Source: Actinomycetes bacterium
GTDB taxonomy: Bacteria; Actinomycetota; Acidimicrobiia; Acidimicrobiales; Acidimicrobiaceae
Direction: 5' to 3'
Length of the DNA stretch: 64,000 nt
NCBI GenBank assembly: GCA_021803345.1
Contig: JAJZLS010000088.1
Location: forward strand, 47,989 to 111,988
Shown: positions 3,763-15,272 of the stretch, in pieces
How positions within the stretch are numbered: the stretch's first letter is position 1
Layout of the letters: every line of letters starts with the position of its first letter
Position numbers and translations under genes: made by a program
Notes under the pieces: generated by a model
Seen by the model: the letters and a program-made list of their open reading frames with translations, nothing else
Databases searched by the model: none
What the model was told of the DNA's origin: nothing

Positions 3763-4539
3763 TTATTGAATCTGGTTCTCGAGTTCTATTCTCAAGTTTC
3801 TGAGTCCTTGGTGAATTAATTGGGTGACGCGGGATCTGTCTATTCCCAAGGTCTCGGCGATCTCGCTCTTCTGAAATCCTTCTAGATAGTGCAGTACTAA
3901 GACTTGACGCTGGCGTTCTGTCAGTCTGAAAAGTGCAGACTTTACCATGTTCCTCATCGATGATAGGTCAGCAGCTTCACTTGGATCTGACGCAGCGGGC
4001 GTCGGTGAGTTGATCCTATCTTCGGTGATCATGGACAATGGAACCAAATAGCTTGAAGAGACGGTGATATCGTCAATTTCCAGGATTTCTTCTACCGAAG
4101 TTTCGAGATGAGCGGCTATTTCCTTTATCGTGGGTGTTCGATGGAGTTCGATTTCTAAGGATTCTCGAGCAATTTGATAAGTGCGGACTCTGGCTCGCAT
4201 TCTCTTAGGAAGAATGTCCTCTTGCCTGAGCTGATCGATGATGGCACCCTGGATTCGTATGGTAGCGTAGGTGGAAAACTTAAAGCCATTGGTGGGATCG
4301 TATCGTTCCACAGCGTTTATTAATCCCAACTGTCCGCTTGAACAAATCTCTTCGATCGACTGAAATGACCGCATACCTTTAGAGATTCGACTCCCAACTA
4401 ATCTAACCAGCGGCGCGTAAAATAATACAAGTCGATTTCTATTTGTAATTGATCGATTATTAAAATAATCAATCCAAAGTTGATCAGCTGTTACTTCTGT
4501 CGTGATCTTTTCGGCAGTAACATCATCTTCTATAAACAC
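3763..4539 (-). CDS. RNA polymerase sigma factor, FliA/WhiG-like (second copy)
   Basis: A sigma-70 family group 3 factor of about 258 residues. Region 2 is clear (LVRLVGSRISKG, GQLGLINAVERYDPTNGFKFSTYATIRIQGAIIDQLR), region 3 follows (PTIKEIAAHLETSVEEIL) and region 4 ends the protein with an HTH (LTERQRQVLVLHYLEGFQKSEIAETLGIDRSRVTQLI). The 'DQLRQEDILPKR' turn corresponds to the DELR..DW.PRS motif of FliA/WhiG but is altered. I prefer the GTG at 4539, which has AAGG and GGGAG upstream, over a TTG at 4581. It is distinct from the whiG gene beside rpsB. No anti-sigma factor or flagellar gene is adjacent, so its regulon is unknown. Confidence 0.8.
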   Translation of the reverse strand: MFIEDDVTAEKITTEVTADQLWIDYFNNRSITNRNRLVLFYAPLVRLVGSRISKGMRSFQSIEEICSSGQLGLINAVERYDPTNGFKFSTYATIRIQGAIIDQLRQEDILPKRMRARVRTYQIARESLEIELHRTPTIKEIAAHLETSVEEILEIDDITVSSSYLVPLSMITEDRINSPTPAASDPSEAADLSSMRNMVKSALFRLTERQRQVLVLHYLEGFQKSEIAETLGIDRSRVTQLIHQGLRNLRIELENQIQ

Positions 4540-4581
4540 GCTCCCAACCTTCTTATTCCCGCCAATAAAGAGATCATTCAA

Positions 4582-5337: not shown

Positions 5338-6165
5338 TCATGGGAAGGGAATTCCGCCTTTAATTTGTTTAGCAGCCCTTACATCCTCGGAATAGGCGCT
5401 TATAGCCTCGTAGGTAAGTTTGGCTACATTAACATAGGCATCCGCTGGTTCTTTATCCAACCCACCTGCTGCATAGCCAATCGCGGAAGTTACCATTCGG
5501 ATACGTCCGTCGAGCCACGGGCCCCCTCCAAATCCACCCAGCACTGGAATGCTCACAGCTTTTGCGACTGCTGCACCAACAATCGGTCCGGAATTTGTGA
5601 AATTTAGCAGGGAGGCGCCGGCCTTTTCAAGCATTTGCGCCTCTTTAATAAGTTCTTCAGTCATCTCAACCGGAACCTGGGACGCGGCCGATGGAGTGGT
5701 GCTGTATTCAAGCCCATATTTTAGAGCAGTTTGCGGTGTTATCCCGAACTGGGCGAATACCGGGATTCCCGCTCGGTTGATAGCGGTTACTGCCTCTGGA
5801 AAATCAGATGCACCATCAAGCTTTACTATGTCGACTCCGGCCTCCTTTACCAACCGGATCGCTGCCTCGACTGCACAATCCACACCTTGTTGAAGCGGGC
5901 CATAAGGAAAGTCACAGCTCAAAATCGCCCTTTTGACTCCTCGACGGACAGCCTGAGCCACCACAAGTATTTGCTCCATGGTGATTTCAAGAGGATGAGG
6001 TTGTCCCCATAAATTGATTCCCACCGTGTCGCCTACTGAAACAAGATCCACTCCGGCTCTATCTACGATGCGGGCGATCTGGTAGTCCCATGCCACAACA
6101 CCGACAATTTTCTTGCCTTCGCTCTTCATAACCTGCAGTGATGGAATCGTGACTTTTTGATCCAT
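5338..6165 (-). CDS. PanB-like (ketopantoate hydroxymethyltransferase fold) protein of a catabolic operon
   Basis: A 275-residue protein with the PanB / PEP-mutase TIM-barrel pattern: VSVGDTVG (Asp46) and SCDFPYG (Asp85) match the metal ligands, VKLDGA has Asp117 where PanB has Glu, and FGITPQT matches the GHLGLTPQ loop without its His. The catalytic Glu of PanB (LECVP) is replaced: the aligned stretch is NFTNSGP around residues 188-193. The protein is therefore unlikely to make ketopantoate. It is the last gene of the minus-strand aromatic operon, 34 bases after the 168-residue protein, with AAGGA before the ATG. A carbon-carbon lyase or related step on a keto acid from the pathway is a reasonable guess, nothing more. 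Confidence 0.75.
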   Translation of the reverse strand: MDQKVTIPSLQVMKSEGKKIVGVVAWDYQIARIVDRAGVDLVSVGDTVGINLWGQPHPLEITMEQILVVAQAVRRGVKRAILSCDFPYGPLQQGVDCAVEAAIRLVKEAGVDIVKLDGASDFPEAVTAINRAGIPVFAQFGITPQTALKYGLEYSTTPSAASQVPVEMTEELIKEAQMLEKAGASLLNFTNSGPIVGAAVAKAVSIPVLGGFGGGPWLDGRIRMVTSAIGYAAGGLDKEPADAYVNVAKLTYEAISAYSEDVRAAKQIKGGIPFP

Positions 6166-6199
6166 TTAGATCCTTTCGAGTGTTGAAATAATCTAAGCT

Positions 6200-6706
6200 T
6201 CACGCCCGAATAGCAGTAAGTAGGTATTCTAGGTCGTTTTTATCGGCTGAAATTATCAGAATTCTTGCATGTGGCCTGAGCGCGGCAACTGTTGAATCTG
6301 CGTTAGTGGATGCGATGATCCCGGCGGTCATAATTCCCCGGACGGTGCATGCAGCTGCAATAGTGTTAGCCGCTGCCGCTCCGGTATCTTGGGTTGCCAC
6401 CATTACCACCACATCGACTGAATCGAGTTCCTGGTTCAGAGGAATGGTTTCGCCGTCGAAGGACCTAAGGGTTACTTCAACCGAGCTGCCGATATAGCTG
6501 TCACAGGATGGGGAGGTATCTAATGCGAAAAAATGAGCCGATTGCCATTGTTGGGAAGCAGCCTTACGTACAATTTCTTCAGCACCCTTGTCAAGCGCGA
6601 TTACCCGCGCACCCCTGGTAGGGACGAGCGGGTAATCAATCCTGTATCGGCTTTCTGATCTAGCAGTTGCCCTTTGGGAATTACTTAGTAACGATTGACC
6701 GTACAT
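6200..6706 (-). CDS. unrecognised 168-residue protein of the catabolic operon
   Basis: I do not recognise this protein. It is soluble, with alternating beta strands and helices: VDVVVMVATQDTGAAAANTIA has a Rossmann-like strand-glycine-helix turn, TVRGIMTAGIIAS and HARILIISADKNDLEYLLTAI look like two further strand-helix units. The start lies only a few bases after the stop of the Rieske oxygenase gene and the stop lies 34 bases before the PanB-like gene, so it is co-transcribed and probably acts in the same pathway. No metal-binding or catalytic signature is evident. It could be a small regulatory or accessory subunit of either neighbour. Confidence 0.7.
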   Translation of the reverse strand: MYGQSLLSNSQRATARSESRYRIDYPLVPTRGARVIALDKGAEEIVRKAASQQWQSAHFFALDTSPSCDSYIGSSVEVTLRSFDGETIPLNQELDSVDVVVMVATQDTGAAAANTIAAACTVRGIMTAGIIASTNADSTVAALRPHARILIISADKNDLEYLLTAIRA

Positions 6707-6711
6707 ATTTT

Positions 6712-7998
6712 CTAAACTGATGCTTGACGAACGCCAGGTTGAACGCTGAGTTCAACTTTTAGCGCCTCGTTGAAGGCCTGGTCTTTCGGAAGCACCACTG
6801 AAGCTGAGCGAACCCTATGATGAGCCGGGTTGACTCCGGGTGGAATTGTTCCATTCTCAGCTAAATCTAGAGCAGCTTGACGGAGCTTTGCTCGTGCTTT
6901 GACGATTCCAATGTCCGTCGTGGTTAGTCTTTCCTTAGTGCGGTCGACGATGGGGCCCATGCTTTCCTGAAGTGACGCGTCCTGAAGGGCAATGCCAGCG
7001 ACTCCAGAGAATGTTTCGTGACGTTTTTGAGCTTCCCGGTCCATCAAGTAGTCATTGCTCTTGTTTCGCACTGGGATATATGTACCTGGGATGTTCTCGC
7101 TGTGGACTCCATGACCGTCCTTCATGGCTTGCAACTCTGTTTCGGTAAGAGGCCGCACCGGATGATAGTCGTAAGTAAATACCCAACAATTTTCGTCATC
7201 GACTGGCACCCAGAAGTGACCGTGGACTGGATGATCTCCTCGTGGGGGCACCATTGTAAAGCTTGGCATTATCCAGGGTGTAACCCGCCAATAGTAATGA
7301 CCTTCCTCAGCGTTTCTTCTGGCGGCAATAAACAGTCCACCATCGGCATCGGCTACCTCAAAAAAGGGCTTGAGATCCTTTAAGTTGTACTCGTTACCTT
7401 TAGCTCCCTTGAAAAGCGGGTCATTGTGCAGCCCACTTGAATGAAGAAATGATACATGGCTAGAGTCGATTCCACCCTCTAATGCCTGGAGCCAATTTGA
7501 TTCCTGGAATCTCTTAGATGTAAAAGTTTGGTTTGCTGGCACATGTAGCCATTCAAAATCGGGTAATGGCGGGGTCTTTTCTGGATCACCCATGTAAGTC
7601 CATAGTACGTCACCCAGCTGAACCAGCGGGTAAGAGCGCAGCTTCACGTTTTGACAGAAAGTGCTATTTGATGGTTCTGATGGAACTTCAACGCACTGAC
7701 CGGTAACGTCATATTTCCATCCGTGATATGCGCATCGCAGTCCAGACTCTTCATTGCGGCCGAACCACAAGGATACTCCGCGATGGGCGCAGAATTCGTC
7801 AATTAATCCAAGCCTGTCCTCTGAATCTCGAAAGGCTATAAGTCGCTCAGAAAGAAGTTTTACTCTTACTGGCGGACAGTCTTTTTCTGGCAGTTCTTCT
7901 GCCAACAGAGCTGGGATCCAATATTGTCTAAAAAGGTTGCCCATTTTGGTGTCTGGTCCTGTTTGTGTCAGGAACTCATTAACCTCTGCTCGAAGCAT
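6712..7998 (-). CDS. Rieske non-heme iron oxygenase, phthalate 4,5-dioxygenase-like oxygenase subunit
   Basis: A 428-residue aromatic-ring-hydroxylating oxygenase. The Rieske [2Fe-2S] ligands are Cys70-x-His72 and Cys89-x2-His92 (CAHRG and CAYHGWK), and the mononuclear iron motif is D178-x2-H181-x4-H186 (GGIDSSHVSFLH). The opening (MLRAEVNEFLTQTGPDTKMG) and the CPPVRVKLLSERLIAFRD stretch resemble the single-component oxygenases of the phthalate 4,5-dioxygenase (Pht3/OphA2) group. Such enzymes need a ferredoxin-type reductase, which is not encoded in this window. Neighbouring LigJ-, LigK- and Pht5-like genes support an aromatic di- or tricarboxylic acid as substrate. The exact substrate is inference. 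An extended -10 and an inverted repeat lie just upstream. Confidence 0.88.
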   Translation of the reverse strand: MLRAEVNEFLTQTGPDTKMGNLFRQYWIPALLAEELPEKDCPPVRVKLLSERLIAFRDSEDRLGLIDEFCAHRGVSLWFGRNEESGLRCAYHGWKYDVTGQCVEVPSEPSNSTFCQNVKLRSYPLVQLGDVLWTYMGDPEKTPPLPDFEWLHVPANQTFTSKRFQESNWLQALEGGIDSSHVSFLHSSGLHNDPLFKGAKGNEYNLKDLKPFFEVADADGGLFIAARRNAEEGHYYWRVTPWIMPSFTMVPPRGDHPVHGHFWVPVDDENCWVFTYDYHPVRPLTETELQAMKDGHGVHSENIPGTYIPVRNKSNDYLMDREAQKRHETFSGVAGIALQDASLQESMGPIVDRTKERLTTTDIGIVKARAKLRQAALDLAENGTIPPGVNPAHHRVRSASVVLPKDQAFNEALKVELSVQPGVRQASV

Positions 7999-8072
7999 TT
8001 TTATTTCCTTTCGCCGATCGGTTCGGTAAGAACGGTCTTTAGGAGTGATGACTTTTTTGAAACTTTGTAATG

Positions 8073-8100
8073 ATTATACCATTAACCTAGAAATGGTTAA
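8073..8100 (-). promoter_or_regulatory. candidate promoter and operator for the Rieske oxygenase gene
   Basis: Read on the minus strand, TTAACC-ATTTCTA-GGTTAA forms a symmetric 6-bp inverted repeat with a 7-base centre, followed at once by TGGTATAAT, an extended -10 hexamer (TATAAT at 8078-8073). The repeat occupies the -35/spacer region, where a repressor or an activator could act. The transcript would start about 70 bases upstream of the oxygenase start codon. The -35 itself is weak (GTTAAC). This makes a separate promoter for the last three genes of the unit plausible. Confidence 0.4.
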
Positions 8101-8200
8101 CAGTTGAGTAAGGTTTGACAGATTAATTAGTTGCAGTACTGTTAGAACTGGTTTTCAGCCGTCCATTTCAGTGGTTTTAGGAGCGTAAAGGCAGAGCTGA

Positions 8201-9226
8201 TCATCGGTTCTGGCTTTTGAGTCTGGCGTCAAGCCTTGGATAGACCTTTCTGGCATTTAGTTCGAAGATCTTTTTGGCCTTATCACGAGGGAGATTAAGG
8301 GCGTCGACGTACAGCTTGGTGTCATCCCAATATTGGCCTGTTTCGGGATTTTTAACATGCGGAACAGCACCCAACATTTCTGATGCAAACAGAATGTTGT
8401 CTGCAGAGACCACCTCAGTTAGGAGATTGATGCCAGGCTGATGGTACACGCATGTGTCGAAGTATACATTGCCCATGACGTGAGTATCGAGGTCTGGTCT
8501 TTTCAGCCTCTCAGAAAGACCTCGGTACCTTCCCCAGTGGTAGGGGACCGCTCCACCACCATGAGGGATGATAAATCGAAGCGTTGGAAATCTCGAGAAC
8601 AGATCGCCCTCAATGAACTGCATGAAGGCAGAGGTATCTGCATTTAAGTAGTGAGCCCCGAGTGCATGAAAGTTGGGATTGCAGGACCCAGAGACGTGTA
8701 TCATGGCTGGTACATCCAATTCCACCATTTTCTCGTAAAGTGGGTACCAGTATTCATCGGTGAGAGGTTTCGAAGTCCAGTAACCTCCAGATGGATCCGG
8801 ATTTAGGTTACATCCTACGAAACCCATTTGCTCGACCGCCCGCGCCAGCTCGGCTACCGAATTATCAAGCGATCCATTTGGTGTCTGCGGTAGTTGACAA
8901 ACACCGGCGAAGTTATCGGGGAATAGGCTCACTACCCGATAAATCAGATCATTGTTGGTACGGGCCCAAGCAACTGCAGTATCGGGGTCCTCAACGTGAT
9001 GAGCCATAGCTGACGCTTTTGGTGAAAATATCATCAAATCACTACCGCGTTGCTTTAGCACCGCCAGTTGATTCAGTTCTATGCTCTCCCGGATGGCATC
9101 ATCACTAATGGTGGCTATTGCCGGCTGCGCTAACGCCGGATTTTTGAGCCTTTCTAATTGCTGATCCCGAAAAATCTGCAATTCTGAAGGGGCTGTGGTG
9201 TAGTGCCCATGACAATCGATGATCAT
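8201..9226 (-). CDS. ligJ: 4-oxalomesaconate hydratase, LigJ-type amidohydrolase
   Basis: A 341-residue amidohydrolase-superfamily protein that matches LigJ from end to end by motif: IDCHGHYTTAP at the start (His6, His8), NLNPDPSGGYWTS, MIHVSGSCN with His177, HYLNADTSAFMQ, IPHGGGAVPYHWGR with His222 and LFASEMLGAV with Glu283, corresponding to the zinc ligands and active-site residues of LigJ. LigJ hydrates 4-oxalomesaconate to 4-carboxy-4-hydroxy-2-oxoadipate in the protocatechuate 4,5-cleavage and gallate routes. The next enzyme, the LigK-type aldolase, is encoded immediately upstream in the same unit, 31 bases away. Confidence 0.9.
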   Translation of the reverse strand: MIIDCHGHYTTAPSELQIFRDQQLERLKNPALAQPAIATISDDAIRESIELNQLAVLKQRGSDLMIFSPKASAMAHHVEDPDTAVAWARTNNDLIYRVVSLFPDNFAGVCQLPQTPNGSLDNSVAELARAVEQMGFVGCNLNPDPSGGYWTSKPLTDEYWYPLYEKMVELDVPAMIHVSGSCNPNFHALGAHYLNADTSAFMQFIEGDLFSRFPTLRFIIPHGGGAVPYHWGRYRGLSERLKRPDLDTHVMGNVYFDTCVYHQPGINLLTEVVSADNILFASEMLGAVPHVKNPETGQYWDDTKLYVDALNLPRDKAKKIFELNARKVYPRLDARLKSQNR

Positions 9227-9257
9227 TTTAACATTCCTGTTCGCCGAGGATTAAATC

Positions 9258-9947
9258 TTATTCTGCAGCTGGTTCATCTATGTATACGAGCCCTTCGCTC
9301 TTGAGCTTGTCTCTCATGTTGTGAAAGTCAAGTCCAAGTTCGCCAGCCTGGTAGCGGGCCCGTGATACCGCCTCTTTTTCTTCCCTTGAAGCGGAAGCCT
9401 TTAACACCTGTGCCGCAGTCTTCCTGGGAACTACCACCACTCCATCGTCATCGGCAACTACTACATCGCCTGGATTGACTATCTGTCCACCGCATACTAT
9501 CGGGACATTTACCGAACCAAGTGTTTCTTTAACGGTACCCGTAGCGCAAATGTAGCGGGACCATACTGGAAATCCCATTGCCTCAAGTTCGGCCACGTCC
9601 CGGCATCCCGCGTCTATCACCAGTCCTCGAACTCCGTGCGCTTTCGCGGAGGTAGCCAACAGTTCGCCGAAATACCCTGCATCGGATGGCGATGTGGGTG
9701 CAACCACTAAAATATCGCCCTCATTGCACCACTCAATTGCGACATGTATCATCCAGTTGTCGGCTGGAGGAACACTCACAGTTATAGCGCTTCCTGAGAT
9801 TCGGGACCCTTTGTAAATTGGGTTAATTTGAGCCGCTAGAAGCCCAGTTCTTCCCTGCGCTTCATGAATTGTTGCTACTCCGAAATTGGAGAGCTGATTC
9901 ACAGTCTCTGAGTCAGCTCTTGGAATATTTTGAACCACTACCGGCAT
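9258..9947 (-). CDS. ligK: 4-carboxy-4-hydroxy-2-oxoadipate aldolase, LigK/ProA (RraA-like) type
   Basis: A 229-residue RraA-fold protein with the class II pyruvate aldolase features of the HMG/CHA aldolase family: [14 protein letters not shown] near the N-terminus, [29 protein letters not shown], then Arg116-Asp117 (GCRDVAEL) as the pyruvate- and metal-binding pair, and [16 protein letters not shown]. The enzyme splits 4-carboxy-4-hydroxy-2-oxoadipate to pyruvate and oxaloacetate, directly after LigJ. Its ATG overlaps the stop of the upstream alcohol dehydrogenase gene (TAATG), with GAGGAG as ribosome binding site, so the two are translationally coupled. RraA proper, the RNase E regulator, is shorter, and the catabolic setting argues against it. 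Confidence 0.9.
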
Positions 9948-11068
9948 TACTGCTCCTCTTTATCGAGCCACGGCATCAATGAAACATGAATAACGTCTGG
10001 TTCGCCGCCGCCAATCGCCTTGATTGCCCTGTCCACATCTTTTAGACCAAATCTATGAGTTGTGAGTAAATCAAGCGGAAATCTCTTTGACGCCAGTTGT
10101 GCTAGAGCAAGTTCGCATGCCACATAGCTGTGTCCTCTGGCGCTTTTGATGGTTATAGCTTTTTCTGTCAATTTCTTTAGAGGGAAATCTGGAAATCCAG
10201 CCAGTTCACCCTGAACTAGCAGAGTTCCACCTCGACGCTTTAGCGCATCAATTCCAAGGAAGATCGGTGTTACACCCGCACCTGAAGTGCAGTCCAGAAC
10301 GACGTCCACCCCTTGACCTTTGGTGATTTCCATGATCCTTGAAAGCGCATCCTCGCTTTGTACGTCGATCACGTAATCGGCGCCCAAAACTTTAGCCAGA
10401 TCTAACCGTGCTTTGTCTCGTGTGGTTCCGGTAACGATTACCAGAGAGGCCCCAGCCTGCTTGCAAGCCACTGCTTGAGACAGCCCCTGTTGGCCTGGAC
10501 CCTGAATAAGCACGGTCGAGTTATATCCGACTCCGGCGTCCAGAAGAGCCCATTGGATCCCATTGGACATTGGGGTCACAAGGCCGGCCAGTTCTGCAGA
10601 CACCCCGTCGGGAACTTTGTGAATCACCGCATTCCAGGGAAGGTACATATATTCGGCAAATCCACCCCAAAGGTGATAGGGATTTTCCGCTGAAGTGTAA
10701 CCATACCGACGGGCGTTGGTGTTGGTTCTCCAGTCCGTGTTTTCACAATGTCTGTATTCGCCAATATGGCACCATTGGCAGTTGAAACATCCAACGTAGT
10801 GTTCCACGAAGATACGGTCGCCGTTTTTGACGCCTTTTCTCTCCATGAACTCTTCGCTGGCGTTAGTTACAATTCCAATGTTCTCGTGTCCCATTATCAC
10901 GGGGCCCTCGATGGTGGGTTTTGCGTACAGTTTTACGTCGGTACCGCAAATTCCCGCAACTTCCACTTTCATGAGAGCGCTCCCTTCCGGCACCTCCGGC
11001 AGTGGGAATTCTCTGATTTCGGTCGTTCCGGGACCAGTACGAACAGCTGCTAATACGGTTTGATTCAT
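9947..11068 (-). CDS. zinc-dependent alcohol dehydrogenase (MDR family)
   Basis: A 373-residue medium-chain dehydrogenase. The catalytic zinc ligands Cys41 (AGICGTD) and His61-Glu62 (GHEN) and the structural zinc cysteines 94, 97, 100 and 108 ([16 protein letters not shown]) are all present. The nucleotide-binding turn is [12 protein letters not shown] instead of the usual GxGxxG. It is the first gene of the minus-strand catabolic unit and overlaps the aldolase gene. It could oxidise a hydroxyl or hemiacetal intermediate, for example in place of LigC (CHMS dehydrogenase) or a dihydrodiol dehydrogenase, but this is inference; the substrate is not readable from sequence. Confidence 0.85.
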
Positions 11069-11215
11069 TGATGATTCCTCACTGAATTTCCCAAGGGCTT
11101 AAGGTATTATGCTTAGACGCATTATAGATCACAGTACCCGATACTAGTCTTTTGAGGGTTGAGATTCCAACAGGTTTTACAGCGGCTTCCGTTCGGAAAA
11201 GAGGGGGTTTGTTTT
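11069..11215. promoter_or_regulatory. divergent promoter region of the catabolic island
   Basis: The 147 bases between the start of the alcohol dehydrogenase gene (minus) and the Pht5-like gene (plus) must hold promoters for both units. AT-rich segments such as GGTATTATGC and CATTATAG could be -10 elements. I see no copy of the TTAACC repeat found upstream of the Rieske gene, and no regulator gene lies in the island. Confidence 0.4.
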
Positions 11216-12163
11216 ATGGAAAAAAAGATTCTCAAGACGGTTACCCGAACTCAAGGGAACAATCAGGCGATTAAGGACGGATCAGTCAAGCCTAAGAACT
11301 TCGAGTTTGATTTTGAAGAAGTGCCAATTCTTGTCCAAGCATTTAGAAGAATGGTGCGGAACCTTGAATTCGATGTCTGTGAAATGGCTATAACCACATA
11401 TTTATGCGCAAAGGAGCACGGCAAGAAATTTACAGCACTTCCAATCTTTTTGGTTAGAGGTTTCCACCAAGAGGCAATTTTTGTCAACGCTGAGTCAAAT
11501 ATTAAATCTCCTCAGGATCTCCAGGGTGGAAAAATTGGTGTCAATCGCGGCTATACAGTTACGACCGGTGTCTGGGCAAGGGGTATCCTCGGAGAAAGCT
11601 ATGGAGTGGATCTTAACTCTATAACCTGGGTGCTTTCTGGCGATGAACACGTCGCCGAGTACAAGGCCCCGTCCAATGTCACTTCCATGGGAAAGGACAC
11701 GACTCTGGAAGAGATGTTGATAAATGGTGAAATTGATGCTGCCATAGGCATAGAGAGTTCAAACCCAATCATCAAGCCATTGATAGATGATGCAACCGAA
11801 GTTGGATTCAAATCACTCCAGGAAACCGGGTTGTACCCAATTAATCATCTTGTAGTTGTAAAAGACCAATTAATTGCCGATTATCCTGACCTGGCTGAAG
11901 ATGTGTTTGGTGCTTTCGCAAAGGCAAAGCAGATGTATGTTGAAAAGCTTCGTGCCGGCGATATACCCCAGCCAAATAAGACAGATCAGATGTACCGCCG
12001 AGTGATGGAAGTGACCGGCGCTGATCCGCTTCCTTATGGGATCGAACCAAATCGATTTAATATTGAGAAACTTATTGACTACGCCATGGGTCAGTCAATA
12101 ATAACCAGGCGCCCGTCCATAGAGGAGGTATTTGTGCCTTCCACCCTTAACCTGACGGCGTAG
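11216..12163 (+). CDS. 4,5-dihydroxyphthalate decarboxylase (Pht5)-like, periplasmic-binding-protein fold
   Basis: The product (315 residues from the ATG at 11216, GAGGGGG upstream; a TTG at 11159 would add 19 residues) has the type II periplasmic binding protein fold but no signal peptide. It matches Pht5 in order: FEFDFEEV, AFRRMVRNLEFDVCEMAITTYL, NRGYTVTTGVWARGIL, GVDLNSITWVLSGDEHVAEY, LEEMLINGEIDAAIG, LYPINHLVVVKDQL. Pht5 removes one carboxyl group of 4,5-dihydroxyphthalate to give protocatechuate. Together with the Rieske oxygenase and LigJ/LigK homologues this supports a phthalate-type pathway. Automated pipelines may call it an ABC transporter binding protein, but no permease or ATPase gene is near. 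Confidence 0.8.
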   Translation: MEKKILKTVTRTQGNNQAIKDGSVKPKNFEFDFEEVPILVQAFRRMVRNLEFDVCEMAITTYLCAKEHGKKFTALPIFLVRGFHQEAIFVNAESNIKSPQDLQGGKIGVNRGYTVTTGVWARGILGESYGVDLNSITWVLSGDEHVAEYKAPSNVTSMGKDTTLEEMLINGEIDAAIGIESSNPIIKPLIDDATEVGFKSLQETGLYPINHLVVVKDQLIADYPDLAEDVFGAFAKAKQMYVEKLRAGDIPQPNKTDQMYRRVMEVTGADPLPYGIEPNRFNIEKLIDYAMGQSIITRRPSIEEVFVPSTLNLTA

Positions 12164-12172
12164 TAAACAACC

Positions 12173-12643
12173 ATGGTGATCAATGTTCCCACCAGCATAG
12201 CTATAGCAGCTGATCATAATGGGGTGCCTCTCAAGGCGCATTTGACCGAATTCCTTATCTCCCAGGGATGCCGGGTGGTCGATCTTGGAACCAATAGCGA
12301 TGAGGTGGTGGACTATCCATACTTCTGTTATCGCTTGGCTAAACGGGTGTTATCCGGTGAGGTCGATCGTGGAGTGATGATAGGTGGCAGCGGGCAGGGG
12401 GAAACGATAGCCTTGAACAAAATCCGCGGAGTGCGTGCAGGGCTTTGTAACTCTTTGTTTGACGCCGAGATATCGAGTGGGAACAACAACGCCAATATCT
12501 TGGTATTAGCCGGGAAAGTACTCTCGTCGGATTTTGCAGAGGAAATCTTGACACTTTGGCTTAACACGCCATTTAGGGGTGGAGTTCATCAGAAAAGATT
12601 AGATCTGATATCAATGCTTGAGGCGGGCAAGGAACTTAACTAA
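12173..12643 (+). CDS. RpiB/LacAB-type sugar-phosphate isomerase in the catabolic unit
   Basis: A 156-residue protein of the ribose-5-phosphate isomerase B family: IAADHNGVPLKAHL at the N-terminus and GGSGQGETIALNKIRGVRAG as the phosphate-binding and catalytic loop, with Glu in the position used by actinobacterial RpiB instead of Cys. In the segment SSGNNNANILVLAG, the His of the usual HNNAN is Asn. The gene starts 9 bases after the Pht5-like gene and ends 106 bases before the alpha/beta-hydrolase gene. Family enzymes interconvert aldose and ketose phosphates through an enediol; in this setting a role in keto-enol isomerisation of a pathway intermediate is possible but unproven. Confidence 0.8.
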   Translation: MVINVPTSIAIAADHNGVPLKAHLTEFLISQGCRVVDLGTNSDEVVDYPYFCYRLAKRVLSGEVDRGVMIGGSGQGETIALNKIRGVRAGLCNSLFDAEISSGNNNANILVLAGKVLSSDFAEEILTLWLNTPFRGGVHQKRLDLISMLEAGKELN

Positions 12644-12749
12644 GCAGTTTGGTTTGTCTGATGGTTGTCAATGGCGGCCGTCGCCAGATTCAGCTCTGGT
12701 CATTTTGTAAAGCGGACAGATCGTCGGGATTGAATGGTGGAGGCTTTTA

Positions 12750-13604
12750 ATGGATACTATAGTCATCGCTGGAATAAAAACTAGGTATGAGGTATCCGGA
12801 TCCGGTCCGCCGCTTTTGATGTATTCGCCTGGCGGGTTCGATTCGTCGCTTGAGAACTGGAGTTCTTTCAGTATCTATAGGAGGCTGAACCTTATACAAC
12901 ATCTAAGCGAACGCTATACCTGTATTACTTTTGACAGGCGTGAATCAGGAAAGTCGGGTGGACGCATAGAGATTATTACCTGGAGTGACTACGTGGCTCA
13001 AGGTAGTGGGTTACTTGATTATCTAGGGATTGACAGGGCTCACCTTATGGGCGGATGCGTTGGGTGTTCATCTGTAGCCCAATTTGCAGTCACCTACCCT
13101 GAGCGGGTGATGAGCATGGTGATGTTTTCACCAGCCGGTGGTCCAAAGTATAGGATCAATCAGCATGCCAGGTTGAACCGTCACGCCGCTTTTGTGGCTG
13201 AAAACAGTCTTGCGGCTGTTGTGGAGCTTGCCCTCAGCCACGAAAAGGGGTTTTCGCAAGATCCCAGGATTGGACCCTGGGCAAGTGTGATCCGGACTGA
13301 CCCCTCCTTTGCTTCCAGTTATGCTTCTTTAGACCTGGAAAGTTATCAGACCGTTGTGGCAGGAATGACTAGGACGTTGTTTGATAAAGATACGGTGCCT
13401 GGCCCACAACCCGAGCAAATAATGAGTCTTGCTATTCCTTCATTGATAGTTCCAGGTCAGGATAGTTCGCACGCTCCGTCTGCCGCCCGATACCTTGAGG
13501 AATGCCTTTCTGGATCACAATACTGGGATATGCCGGTGGCAGATCAAACTGAGGAGACGGTAAATCCCAGAATTCTTGAGTTTTTGGATTCGCTTCAGCA
13601 GTAG
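12750..13604 (+). CDS. alpha/beta-hydrolase-fold protein with a Cys nucleophile
   Basis: A 284-residue alpha/beta-hydrolase with the usual core: oxyanion loop SPGGF (residues 26-30), FDRRESGKSGG (62-71) and nucleophile elbow G101-G-C103-V-G105. The nucleophile is thus Cys, as in dienelactone hydrolase, rather than Ser. Asp238 (VPGQD) occupies the acid position. The usual catalytic His near residue 265 is absent: the segment reads MPVADQTEETVN. His241 is the only nearby His. It may hydrolyse a lactone or thioester slowly, or have another function. GGAGG precedes the ATG. As last gene of the plus-strand catabolic unit, it could replace a lactonase such as LigI; this is inference. Confidence 0.8.
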   Translation: MDTIVIAGIKTRYEVSGSGPPLLMYSPGGFDSSLENWSSFSIYRRLNLIQHLSERYTCITFDRRESGKSGGRIEIITWSDYVAQGSGLLDYLGIDRAHLMGGCVGCSSVAQFAVTYPERVMSMVMFSPAGGPKYRINQHARLNRHAAFVAENSLAAVVELALSHEKGFSQDPRIGPWASVIRTDPSFASSYASLDLESYQTVVAGMTRTLFDKDTVPGPQPEQIMSLAIPSLIVPGQDSSHAPSAARYLEECLSGSQYWDMPVADQTEETVNPRILEFLDSLQQ

Positions 13605-13691: not shown

Positions 13692-15272
13692 CTAGCTAAC
13701 CTGGTCCAATTTCCAGGTGGGATTTTGGGACGCAACGTGATCTAGCCAATAGGAGCTTTCAAACAGTGCCATTAGTGTTCCATCACCTCTTGCAAAAACC
13801 CTAGCTCCGTTGATACTGTCGAGTTTTTCTGCGGTCGCTTCGTCGGTTACTCGTGCAACTTTATAGATACTTGGTGACAAAAGGACTTCCGCTCCAAATT
13901 CGTACTGAATGCGGTGAGCGAATACTTCAAACTGCATCTGTCCGACTGCGGCTAAAACGATTGGAAGTTCATCTTTTTTATCCCTTAAAACCTGGATTAC
14001 TCCCTCGCGCTCAAGCTGATGCAGCCCACTGCGAAATTGCTTGTGCTTGCTGGTGTCTCGCGTCTGGACAGTGGAGAAAATTTCAGGTACAAAGGAAGCG
14101 AATGGAGGGAAAGTGACTGGGCTCGATTGGTAGAGCGTATCGCCGATCTGCAACTCGCTCGCATTGACCAGCCCGACTACGTCACCCGGGTAGGCCTTAT
14201 CTATGGTGTCTCGATCCGATCCAAATACAGAGGTTGCGTACTTTGTCGAAAAGGATTTACCGGTTCTGCCATGGATCAGCGGCATCCCGCGGTTGAATTC
14301 TCCCGAACAGACTCTTACAAAAGCCAGATGATCCCTATGGGAAGGGTCCATGTTGGCTTGGATTTTGAACACAAAACCGGAAAAAGGTTCTTCGAGTGAT
14401 CTTGGTGAGCCTTCGGTGTCGCTCCTGGCGCCAGGCGGCGGCGCTAAGTCAACAATCGCGTCAAGTAGGTGCCTTACCCCAAAGTTTGTAAGTGCCGAGC
14501 CAACAAACAGGGGTGTTGTTTCGCCCGCCAGGAACGACTTGATATCTAAATTGGCTCCTATCTCATCCAGTAGGTGACATTCATATTTTGCACTTTCCCA
14601 GTCGTCACCGATTCTTTGAGAGGCGGTATCTTCGTCGAGTATTTCCTCACTAGCCATATTTAAACCACGGATACTTCTAGTGAAATTGATAAAGGTCCCG
14701 TCTCTGCGGTCAATAACTCCTTTAAAATTGCCGGGTATCCCTACTGGCCACGTGACTGGCGTAGGTTTGAGGTTGATCTGCCGTTCTATCTGATCGAGCA
14801 ATTCCAGCGGATCCCGGCCCGGCCTGTCGAATTTGTTGATAAATGTTATTATCGGCAAGGATTGGGCTCTACAGACTTCGAATAGTTTCAAAGTTTGGGT
14901 TTCAATGCCTTTTGCCGCATCGAGCACCATGATTGCTGCATCCACAGCGGATAGGACTCTATAGGTATCTTCGGAAAAGTCGCGGTGCCCGGGGGTGTCG
15001 AGGAGGTTGAATATGTGTTCACGATATTTAAATTGCAAAACTGTAGACGTGACTGAAATTCCACGCTGTTGCTCGAGGGCCATCCAATCTGAGGTGGCTT
15101 TACGTCGTCCCGCCCGAGCTTTTACCGCACCTGCTTCTGCTACCGCTCCGGCGTATAACAGAAATTTTTCAGTAAGAGTGGTTTTACCGGCATCGGGATG
15201 GCTAATGATGGCAAATGTTCGGCGTCGGTTGGCTTCTATGGATTCTTTTCTCGCGGGACTCGCAGTGTTCAC
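13692..15272 (-). CDS. prfC: peptide chain release factor 3 (RF3)
   Basis: A 526-residue translational GTPase with the full RF3 layout. G1 is SHPDAGKTTLTEK, the switch I region holds RGISVTSTV, G3 is DTPGH, and G4 is NKFDRPGRDP. The C-terminal domain has QRDTSKHKQFRSGLHQL-like sequence (TRDTSKHKQF) and AVGQMQFEVFAHR, which distinguish RF3 from EF-G. It recycles RF1 and RF2 after peptide release. The start is a GTG. It converges with the hydrolase gene and diverges from amt. RF3 is not universal in bacteria, so its presence is a usable lineage marker. Confidence 0.95.
   Translation of the reverse strand: MNTASPARKESIEANRRRTFAIISHPDAGKTTLTEKFLLYAGAVAEAGAVKARAGRRKATSDWMALEQQRGISVTSTVLQFKYREHIFNLLDTPGHRDFSEDTYRVLSAVDAAIMVLDAAKGIETQTLKLFEVCRAQSLPIITFINKFDRPGRDPLELLDQIERQINLKPTPVTWPVGIPGNFKGVIDRRDGTFINFTRSIRGLNMASEEILDEDTASQRIGDDWESAKYECHLLDEIGANLDIKSFLAGETTPLFVGSALTNFGVRHLLDAIVDLAPPPGARSDTEGSPRSLEEPFSGFVFKIQANMDPSHRDHLAFVRVCSGEFNRGMPLIHGRTGKSFSTKYATSVFGSDRDTIDKAYPGDVVGLVNASELQIGDTLYQSSPVTFPPFASFVPEIFSTVQTRDTSKHKQFRSGLHQLEREGVIQVLRDKKDELPIVLAAVGQMQFEVFAHRIQYEFGAEVLLSPSIYKVARVTDEATAEKLDSINGARVFARGDGTLMALFESSYWLDHVASQNPTWKLDQVS

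What the first reader, a model, noticed from the sequence alone, without database searches (positions are those of the whole stretch)
5338..13604. A phthalate-type aromatic catabolic island joined to the oxalomesaconate branch, with several pathway enzymes missing or replaced
Seen: a Rieske oxygenase of the phthalate 4,5-dioxygenase type, a Pht5-like decarboxylase homologue, and LigJ- and LigK-type enzymes, in two divergent units. Known: Pht5 yields protocatechuate, and LigJ and LigK finish the protocatechuate 4,5-cleavage path to pyruvate and oxaloacetate. Not seen: LigAB ring-cleavage dioxygenase, LigC, LigI, the oxygenase reductase and the dihydrodiol dehydrogenase. In their place stand a Zn-alcohol dehydrogenase, an RpiB-like isomerase, a Cys-type alpha/beta-hydrolase fold, a PanB-like protein and an unknown protein. 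This could be an incomplete module completed elsewhere or a variant route with unrelated enzymes.
Basis: partly seen in the sequence, partly recalled or inferred. Interest (0 to 1): 0.7.

Follow-up and report, generated by a model that had tools for sequence, protein, structure and literature searches.

The report
Oxalomesaconate catabolic cluster lacking LigAB
A set of eight or nine neighbouring genes, shared by many soil actinobacteria and some marine bacteria, looks like an undescribed way to break down an acid-rich aromatic compound: it ends like a known lignin-related pathway but its genes do not include that pathway's usual ring-opening enzyme.

Summary
The nine genes are real, at the stated coordinates, in two divergent units, and are not a chance neighbourhood. 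A genome scan with the PanB-like protein gave 59 loci at 49-80% identity. Among the 31 of at least 20 kb: ABH 30, ADH 30, DHPD 29, LigJ 28, Rieske 26, unknown protein 25, LigK 25, RpiB-like 11, LigB-like 1. LigJ and LigK are true relatives. The Rieske enzyme is nearest isophthalate dioxygenase; 53 of 53 sequences keep its two carboxylate-binding residues and have Arg for Phe249, hinting at a third anionic group on the substrate. LigAB is not a constant partner: 23 of 39 carrier genomes have no LigA match, 5 of 39 no LigB match. The PanB-like protein keeps the metal site but lost PanB's catalytic residues; the hydrolase-fold protein has Cys, and Gln where His is expected. Substrate and ring-opening step are unproven; host dioxygenases remain a serious rival. 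New variant of a known kind.

The parts
5338..6165 (-). PanB-like protein (Pantoate_transf fold) of a separate catabolic subfamily
   Evidence: Pfam PF02548 E 1.1e-59, below the NCBIfam panB cut-off (148.8 < 207.55); metal-site Asp46/Asp85 and Lys115 kept in 62 of 62, catalytic Glu/His/Glu replaced by Asp/Gln/Thr in 60, 60 and 59 of 62 while 13 of 13 ordinary PanBs keep them
6200..6706 (-). 168-aa protein of unknown family, next to the Rieske oxygenase
   Evidence: no Pfam or NCBIfam match at E<=0.001; found in 25 of 31 long loci; 38-member alignment
6712..7998 (-). Rieske oxygenase, isophthalate-dioxygenase type, with Arg253 at IPDO position 249
   Evidence: 468.7 bits to 9ina; specificity residues compared
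8201..9226 (-). LigJ, 4-oxalomesaconate hydratase
   Evidence: 490 bits to 6dxq over residues 1-339
9258..9947 (-). LigK, 4-carboxy-4-hydroxy-2-oxoadipate aldolase
   Evidence: TIGR02798 336.9 bits (cut-off 304.5), NF006731 360.7 (cut-off 179)
9947..11068 (-). zinc-type alcohol dehydrogenase; the step it serves is inferred
   Evidence: PF08240/PF00107; in 30 of 31 long loci
11069..11215 (.). divergent intergenic region between the two units
11216..12163 (+). 4,5-dihydroxyphthalate-decarboxylase-like protein
   Evidence: 119.6 bits to 9jp7; one of seven such matches in this genome
12173..12643 (+). RpiB/LacAB-fold isomerase-like protein (optional member)
   Evidence: PF02502 E 1.3e-44, below TIGR01120 and TIGR02133 cut-offs; in 11 of 31 long loci
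12750..13604 (+). alpha/beta-hydrolase-fold protein, Cys103 at the nucleophile, conserved Gln266 where the catalytic His is expected (by eye)
   Evidence: PF00561; 56- and 39-member alignments

Best explanation
This is a dedicated catabolic cluster for an isophthalate-type aromatic polycarboxylate that converges on 4-oxalomesaconate without a constant LigAB partner. SHOWN: a conserved gene set; LigJ and LigK homology; no constant LigA, LigB or intradiol partner across carriers; altered active-site residues in the PanB-like and hydrolase-fold proteins. INFERRED, in order: (1) the Rieske oxygenase, with ferredoxin and reductase encoded elsewhere in this genome, dihydroxylates a substrate with carboxylates at C1 and C3 and a third anionic group, perhaps near C6 (1,2,4-benzenetricarboxylate, trimellitate, is the simplest candidate); (2) the Zn-ADH dehydrogenates the dihydrodiol with loss of CO2, which from trimellitate would give 4,5-dihydroxyphthalate; (3) the DHPD-like protein decarboxylates; (4) the adjacent PanB-like/Cys-hydrolase pair does the ring-opening and hydrolytic steps that LigAB/LigC/LigI do elsewhere; (5) the RpiB-like protein, where present, tautomerises oxalomesaconate; (6) LigJ hydrates it and LigK cleaves the product to pyruvate and oxaloacetate. 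Steps 1 and 6 rest on homology plus residue checks; steps 2 to 5 are hypotheses.
For: Conservation: ABH 30, ADH 30, DHPD 29, LigJ 28, Rieske 26, LigK 25 of 31 long loci; PanB-like and ABH genes adjacent on one strand in 49 of 51 loci with ABH. Homologous loci add electron-transfer genes: FNR-type reductase (Pfam on its L119 relative) and a Rieske ferredoxin by eye in L031; 2Fe-2S ferredoxin and FAD reductase in L062, with relatives in 21 and 29 loci. Six of eight marine genomes keep a 60-64% identical Rieske gene away from the cluster. G632 has a separate LigA/LigB locus with its own LigJ (54%) and LigK (57%), so the cluster's pair is a second set. In L102 an HpcH/HpaI aldolase beside LigJ stands in for LigK. 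R234, H257 and V178 of IPDO kept in 53 of 53, Arg at 249 in 53 of 53; [quoted passage not shown] No LigA match in 23 of 39 carriers, including single-contig G315; no LigB match in 5 of 39, three of them isolates by record title.
Against: No protein of the cluster belongs to a known ring-cleaving family, and PanB-like enzymes are not known to open rings (recalled). 34 of 39 carriers do have some LigB-family gene and 10 of 11 tested some intradiol-type gene, the own genome included, so ring cleavage could be borrowed from the host. The genomes without LigA and LigB matches are drafts; single-contig G315 lacks LigA but has three LigB-family genes. Against trimellitate: in PMC12445078 V178 is described as blocking ortho- and para-substituted substrates, the widened enzyme was the double mutant V178A/F249H, and all 53 cluster enzymes keep Val there. 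L061 has no DHPD, ADH, LigK or LigJ, and L082 has only the ADH, within the stretch held; L100 and L101 have PanB-ABH without the isophthalate-type Rieske gene in the stretch held. The LigJ tree does not make cluster LigJs one clade; betaproteobacterial ones fall with canonical ones.
Confidence: 0.45

Rival explanations
1. The cluster supplies a catechol-type acid (protocatechuate or gallate) and the ring is opened by whichever housekeeping dioxygenase the host has: LigAB in some, PcaGH in others. ADH, hydrolase fold and RpiB-like protein then replace LigC, LigI and LigU/GalD.
For: G619, G623, G239, G315 and the own genome have two adjacent intradiol-type matches and no over-cut-off LigA; G620 (weak intradiol match only) and G632 (none) have LigA and LigB. 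Intradiol cleavage of gallate to 2-pyrone-4,6-dicarboxylate is known (recalled).
Against: Protocatechuate cleaved by PcaGH goes to beta-ketoadipate (recalled), leaving LigJ/LigK without a role. G618 has no LigA or LigB match and one weaker intradiol match (6.5e-19). G632 has its own lig locus yet keeps a second LigJ/LigK in the cluster.
Confidence: 0.3
2. The substrate is a nitrogen heteroaromatic isostere of isophthalate (for example pyridine-2,4-dicarboxylate), ring opening is hydrolytic at C-N, and 2-pyridone-4,6-dicarboxylate-type chemistry gives oxalomesaconate plus ammonia, so no ring-cleaving dioxygenase is needed.
For: The carbon skeleton of pyridine-2,4-dicarboxylate maps onto oxalomesaconate (inference); hydrolase-fold enzymes serve in N-heterocycle pathways (recalled); a NadC-like ORF (by eye) lies on the same contig within some 25 kb of the Rieske gene in marine carriers.
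Against: No amidase, deaminase or molybdenum hydroxylase match among the nine proteins; a DHPD-type decarboxylase would be unexplained.
Confidence: 0.13
3. An incomplete or decaying phthalate module beside unrelated genes.
For: Reductase, ferredoxin and ring-cleavage genes are absent from the nine.
Against: All nine ORFs are open and most of the set recurs across phyla.
Confidence: 0.03

Closest known systems
Protocatechuate/gallate 4,5-cleavage (lig, gal) clusters
   Same: LigJ and LigK
   Different: No LigA, LigB, LigC, LigI or oxalomesaconate tautomerase among the nine. Annotated plasmid loci with a related LigJ have a tautomerase and LigK (L194, L196), FldA and FldZ (L197), LigA/LigB or a protocatechuate 4,5-dioxygenase subunit (L196, L197); L195 shows only a second amidohydrolase; L198 carries no annotation
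Isophthalate catabolic genes iphA2CBA1 of Comamonas
   Same: Oxygenase about 50% identical to IPDO with its carboxylate-binding residues kept
   Different: Arg instead of Phe at position 249; a Zn-ADH rather than the iph dehydrogenase; no reductase among the nine; extra LigJ, LigK, PanB-like, hydrolase fold and unknown protein
Phthalate 4,5-dioxygenase pathway (pht)
   Same: A Pht5/DHPD-like protein
   Different: Oxygenase nearest to isophthalate dioxygenase; no Pht4-type dehydrogenase and no reductase among the nine
Ketopantoate hydroxymethyltransferase (PanB)
   Same: Fold family and metal-site aspartates
   Different: Positions of catalytic Glu114, His136, Glu181 (E. coli numbering and roles recalled) replaced in 59-60 of 62; below the panB cut-off

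Membership tests
Protocatechuate 4,5-cleavage (lig) pathway cluster | LigAB-type ring-cleavage dioxygenase | tested here: not met
   none among the nine; LigB-like gene by tblastn in 1 of 31 long loci; LigA match in 16 of 39 carrier genomes
Protocatechuate 4,5-cleavage (lig) pathway cluster | LigJ and LigK | tested here: met
Protocatechuate 4,5-cleavage (lig) pathway cluster | LigC, LigI and oxalomesaconate tautomerase | tested here: not met
   no such match among the nine proteins
Phthalate 4,5-dioxygenase (pht) cluster | Pht3-type oxygenase | tested here: not met
   nearest solved relative is isophthalate dioxygenase, 468.7 bits, against 338.6 for the putative phthalate enzyme 7fhr; by best match only, no tree
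Phthalate 4,5-dioxygenase (pht) cluster | Pht5 decarboxylase activity | tested here: inconclusive
   119.6 bits to 9jp7; activity not testable here; seven such matches in the genome
Isophthalate dioxygenase (IPDO) | R234, H257 and V178 of the substrate pocket | tested here: met
   53 of 53 sequences
Isophthalate dioxygenase (IPDO) | F249 of the substrate pocket | tested here: not met
   Arg in 53 of 53
PanB (ketopantoate hydroxymethyltransferase) | catalytic Glu/His/Glu and curated score cut-off | tested here: not met
Ribose-5-phosphate isomerase B | equivalog cut-offs TIGR01120, TIGR02133 | tested here: not met
   127.5 < 138.65 and 117.5 < 168.2 bits; the subfamily models TIGR00689 and PRK05571 are passed
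LigK_PcmE equivalog TIGR02798 | score over cut-off | tested here: met
   336.9 against 304.5

The most novel reading that the evidence does not exclude
The PanB-fold protein and the Cys/Gln hydrolase-fold protein form a new ring-opening pair that makes oxalomesaconate from an aromatic or dearomatised polycarboxylate without any known ring-cleavage dioxygenase: a recruited ketopantoate-transferase fold doing C-C bond cleavage in aromatic catabolism.
Probability: 0.15. Interest if true: 0.85.

Novelty: new variant of a known kind. Interest (0 to 1): 0.57.

Why it matters
The cluster is widespread by record titles (Mycolicibacterium, Nonomuraea, Pseudonocardia, Arthrobacter, Microbacterium, Nocardioides, Streptomyces, marine Litorivicinaceae and others). 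Its single genes are likely to be named pantothenate, ribose-phosphate and phthalate genes by automatic annotation, which would hide a whole catabolic route. It predicts a substrate class (benzene polycarboxylates), a PanB-fold family without PanB's catalytic residues, and a hydrolase-fold family without the usual His, all testable. It would also warn against inferring LigAB-type protocatechuate cleavage from the presence of LigJ/LigK alone.

Tried and rejected
Viral contigs searched with LigJ: no match. Plasmid records searched with the PanB-like protein at E<=1e-40: no match, although the genome scan found it on a Mycolicibacterium frederiksbergense record titled plasmid (L074). Literature: nine searches were answered; their listings showed no description of this cluster, which covers only the held open-access library and the terms used. 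The methanesulfonate paper PMC4433239 has a PanB-annotated gene near msm genes (passages read); other context, not followed. The review PMC13040137 was searched for six terms: no occurrence of oxalomesaconate or trimellit-. Gallate/syringate, homarine and vitamin B6 routes were considered from memory and dropped for lack of fitting genes. The 168-aa protein has only a sub-significant profile match to FtsZ (E 0.11); not used. The small gene after the Rieske gene in four marine loci gave no blastp match to the 168-aa protein at E<=1e-6, so I claim no homology. The LigJ tree was built to test co-inheritance and did not resolve the split of cluster and canonical LigJ (support 85/64, midpoint root). 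RpiB-like proteins keep the Glu of the GG(S/T)GxGE motif in all 21 rows shown but vary at the usual His; too variable to build on.
Full report
Observation. All nine genes are present at 5338-13604. Six run leftward (ADH, LigK, LigJ, Rieske, 168-aa unknown, PanB-like) and three rightward (DHPD-like, RpiB-like, hydrolase fold). By eye from the ORF translations the flanks are other genes: a sigma-factor-like ORF at 3763-4581 and a release-factor-like ORF at 13692-15272.

Conservation. In a 247-genome class sample the DHPD-like protein matched 5 genomes at E<=0.001, own included; the own genome alone has seven matches. Genome G239, of another family, holds LigJ, LigK, ADH, DHPD, hydrolase fold, PanB-like, Rieske, a small gene after the Rieske gene, and in addition an FNR-type reductase and, by eye, a Rieske ferredoxin (locus L031). 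In a 396-genome phylum sample the PanB-like protein at E<=1e-50 was found in 5 genomes, own included. The one genome-contig scan gave 72 loci, 13 of them ordinary PanBs at 28-36% identity. Of the remaining 59 (49-80%), 31 are at least 20 kb long; gene counts there: ABH 30, ADH 30, DHPD 29, LigJ 28, Rieske 26, unknown 25, LigK 25, RpiB-like 11, LigB-like (tblastn with the own genome's four LigB proteins) 1; in all 59: ABH 51, ADH 46, DHPD 45, LigJ 44, Rieske 43, unknown 42, LigK 38, RpiB-like 19, LigB-like 1 (the unknown was sought with both the window's and the L031 protein). The PanB-like and ABH genes are adjacent on one strand in 49 of the 51 loci with ABH, which suggests consecutive steps. 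Exceptions: L061 has Rieske, unknown, PanB-like and ABH but no DHPD, ADH, LigK or LigJ in its 20.8 kb; L082 has PanB-like and ADH only; betaproteobacterial L100 and L101 lack the isophthalate-type Rieske gene in the stretch held. Most proteobacterial carriers are MAGs (titles).

Accessory genes. Actinobacterial loci add a GntR-type regulator (by eye), a 2Fe-2S ferredoxin and a FAD reductase. Marine gammaproteobacterial loci add a cupin, an EutA-family protein, an FNR-type reductase and a CobW-type protein. In the four marine loci read there (L163, L165, L167, L169) it is followed by a 170-174-aa gene, which gave no blastp match to the 168-aa protein at E<=1e-6, and preceded by a ferredoxin-like gene and an amidohydrolase.

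Is LigAB the missing partner? Own genome: four LigB-family genes. None passes an NCBIfam cut-off for protocatechuate or gallate dioxygenase; one has a sub-threshold LigA-like neighbour (C76:22727, 24.8 bits against 25.3). One Reductase_C match and seven Fer2 matches could supply electrons. Across 39 cluster-bearing genomes (40 asked, L070 not held) 34 have a LigB-family match, in G239 only a partial one at 5e-8, and 5 none: G618, G619 and G623, isolates by their record titles, and the marine MAGs G627 and G629. 16 have a LigA match (15 over cut-off) and 23 none, among them single-contig G315, which has three LigB-family matches. Intradiol family: 10 of 11 tested, several weak, none in G632; adjacent pairs in G000, G239, G315, G619 and G623. 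So no single ring-cleavage family is constant. In G632 a LigA/LigB locus exists apart from the cluster, with LigJ 54% and LigK 57% identical to the window's, so the cluster's pair is a second set. Drafts can miss genes, and some ring-cleavage gene is common; this speaks against a constant LigAB partner but does not exclude host dioxygenases that differ from host to host.

Altered enzymes. PanB-like: Asp46, Asp85 and Lys115 are kept in 62 of 62, but the positions of E. coli Glu114, His136 and Glu181 (numbering and roles recalled) read Asp in 60, Gln in 60 and Thr in 59 of 62, against Glu/His/Glu in 13 of 13 ordinary PanBs. Hydrolase fold: Cys103 at the nucleophile and Gln266 where the catalytic His usually stands (judged by eye from the C-terminal region) are conserved in at least 97% of 56 sequences and invariant in 39, with His145, Asp238 and His241. 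In L102, an HpcH/HpaI aldolase lies beside LigJ and LigK is missing, as expected if an aldolase is what the step needs.

Substrate. IPDO binds the C1 and C3 carboxylates by R234 and H257; [quoted passage not shown] In 53 of 53 cluster oxygenases R234, H257 and V178 are kept and position 249 is Arg; position 294 is Val in 46 and Ile in 7 (9INA letters copied, numbering offset of 23 consistent at all five residues). From the paper's docking poses, position 249 seems to face C6 of the isophthalate frame; a substrate using all three anchors would be 1,2,4-benzenetricarboxylate. Attack at C3-C4 with dehydrogenative loss of CO2 would then give 4,5-dihydroxyphthalate, the substrate of the decarboxylase family that the cluster also encodes. 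Against it: V178, which the paper says blocks ortho and para substituents and which had to become Ala in the widened mutant, is kept in all 53. A smaller or differently placed anionic group is therefore possible. This is inference, not proof.

Mechanism and limits. I propose Rieske, ADH, DHPD, PanB-like/hydrolase fold, RpiB-like where present, LigJ, LigK. The ring-opening step is the gap. Either the PanB-like/hydrolase pair does it, or a host dioxygenase does (rival 1), or the ring is opened hydrolytically because the substrate is a pyridine (rival 2). The LigJ tree does not support a single cluster clade: betaproteobacterial cluster LigJs fall with canonical LigJs, which suggests separate recruitment.

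Literature. The nine answered searches of the open-access library listed no description of this cluster; subscription papers and preprints are not covered.

Verdict. A real, conserved and, as far as these searches show, undescribed variant of the oxalomesaconate-forming catabolic pathways; worth an experiment.

Noticed in passing
G000:C53:1-23987 (L005, L006): A contig with three ring-hydroxylating-dioxygenase-like genes, two LigB-family genes and several hydrolase-fold genes; with 17 Rieske-domain matches in 2.65 Mb the organism looks like a specialised aromatic degrader.
   Followed up: partly
G000:C76:21897-22954 (L008): A LigB-family gene followed by a sub-threshold LigA-like gene and an alcohol dehydrogenase 33% identical to the window's ADH: a distant two-subunit extradiol dioxygenase of unknown substrate.
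   Followed up: partly
whole own genome: Seven DHPD/Pht5-like matches in one genome, one of them beside an amidohydrolase-like and a FAD-monooxygenase-like gene (L035), suggesting a diversified family.
   Followed up: no
L096, L098, L094, L061, L072, L075, L080, L092: A cupin protein paired with an EutA-family protein recurs beside this cluster in marine Gammaproteobacteria and some Actinomycetota; function unknown.
   Followed up: no
L070:423-7116: Nocardioides agariphilus carries, next to the cluster, a second set with LigK-, LigJ-, Rieske- and ADH-like genes (38-40% identity) that does include a LigB-like gene (30%).
   Followed up: no
L094:12637-12969 and L102:8520-8822: Small proteins of about 100 aa ending in GCSCC or GCDCC occur in proteobacterial carriers that also have a CobW-type gene, perhaps a metal-handling pair for one of the cluster's metalloenzymes.
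   Followed up: no
L116 and L082: A contig titled Klebsiella pneumoniae MAG (L116) shares its gene order with a Betaproteobacteria MAG (L082) around a PanB-like gene; the Klebsiella label looks like a binning error. Both carry the PanB-like gene outside the full cluster.
   Followed up: no
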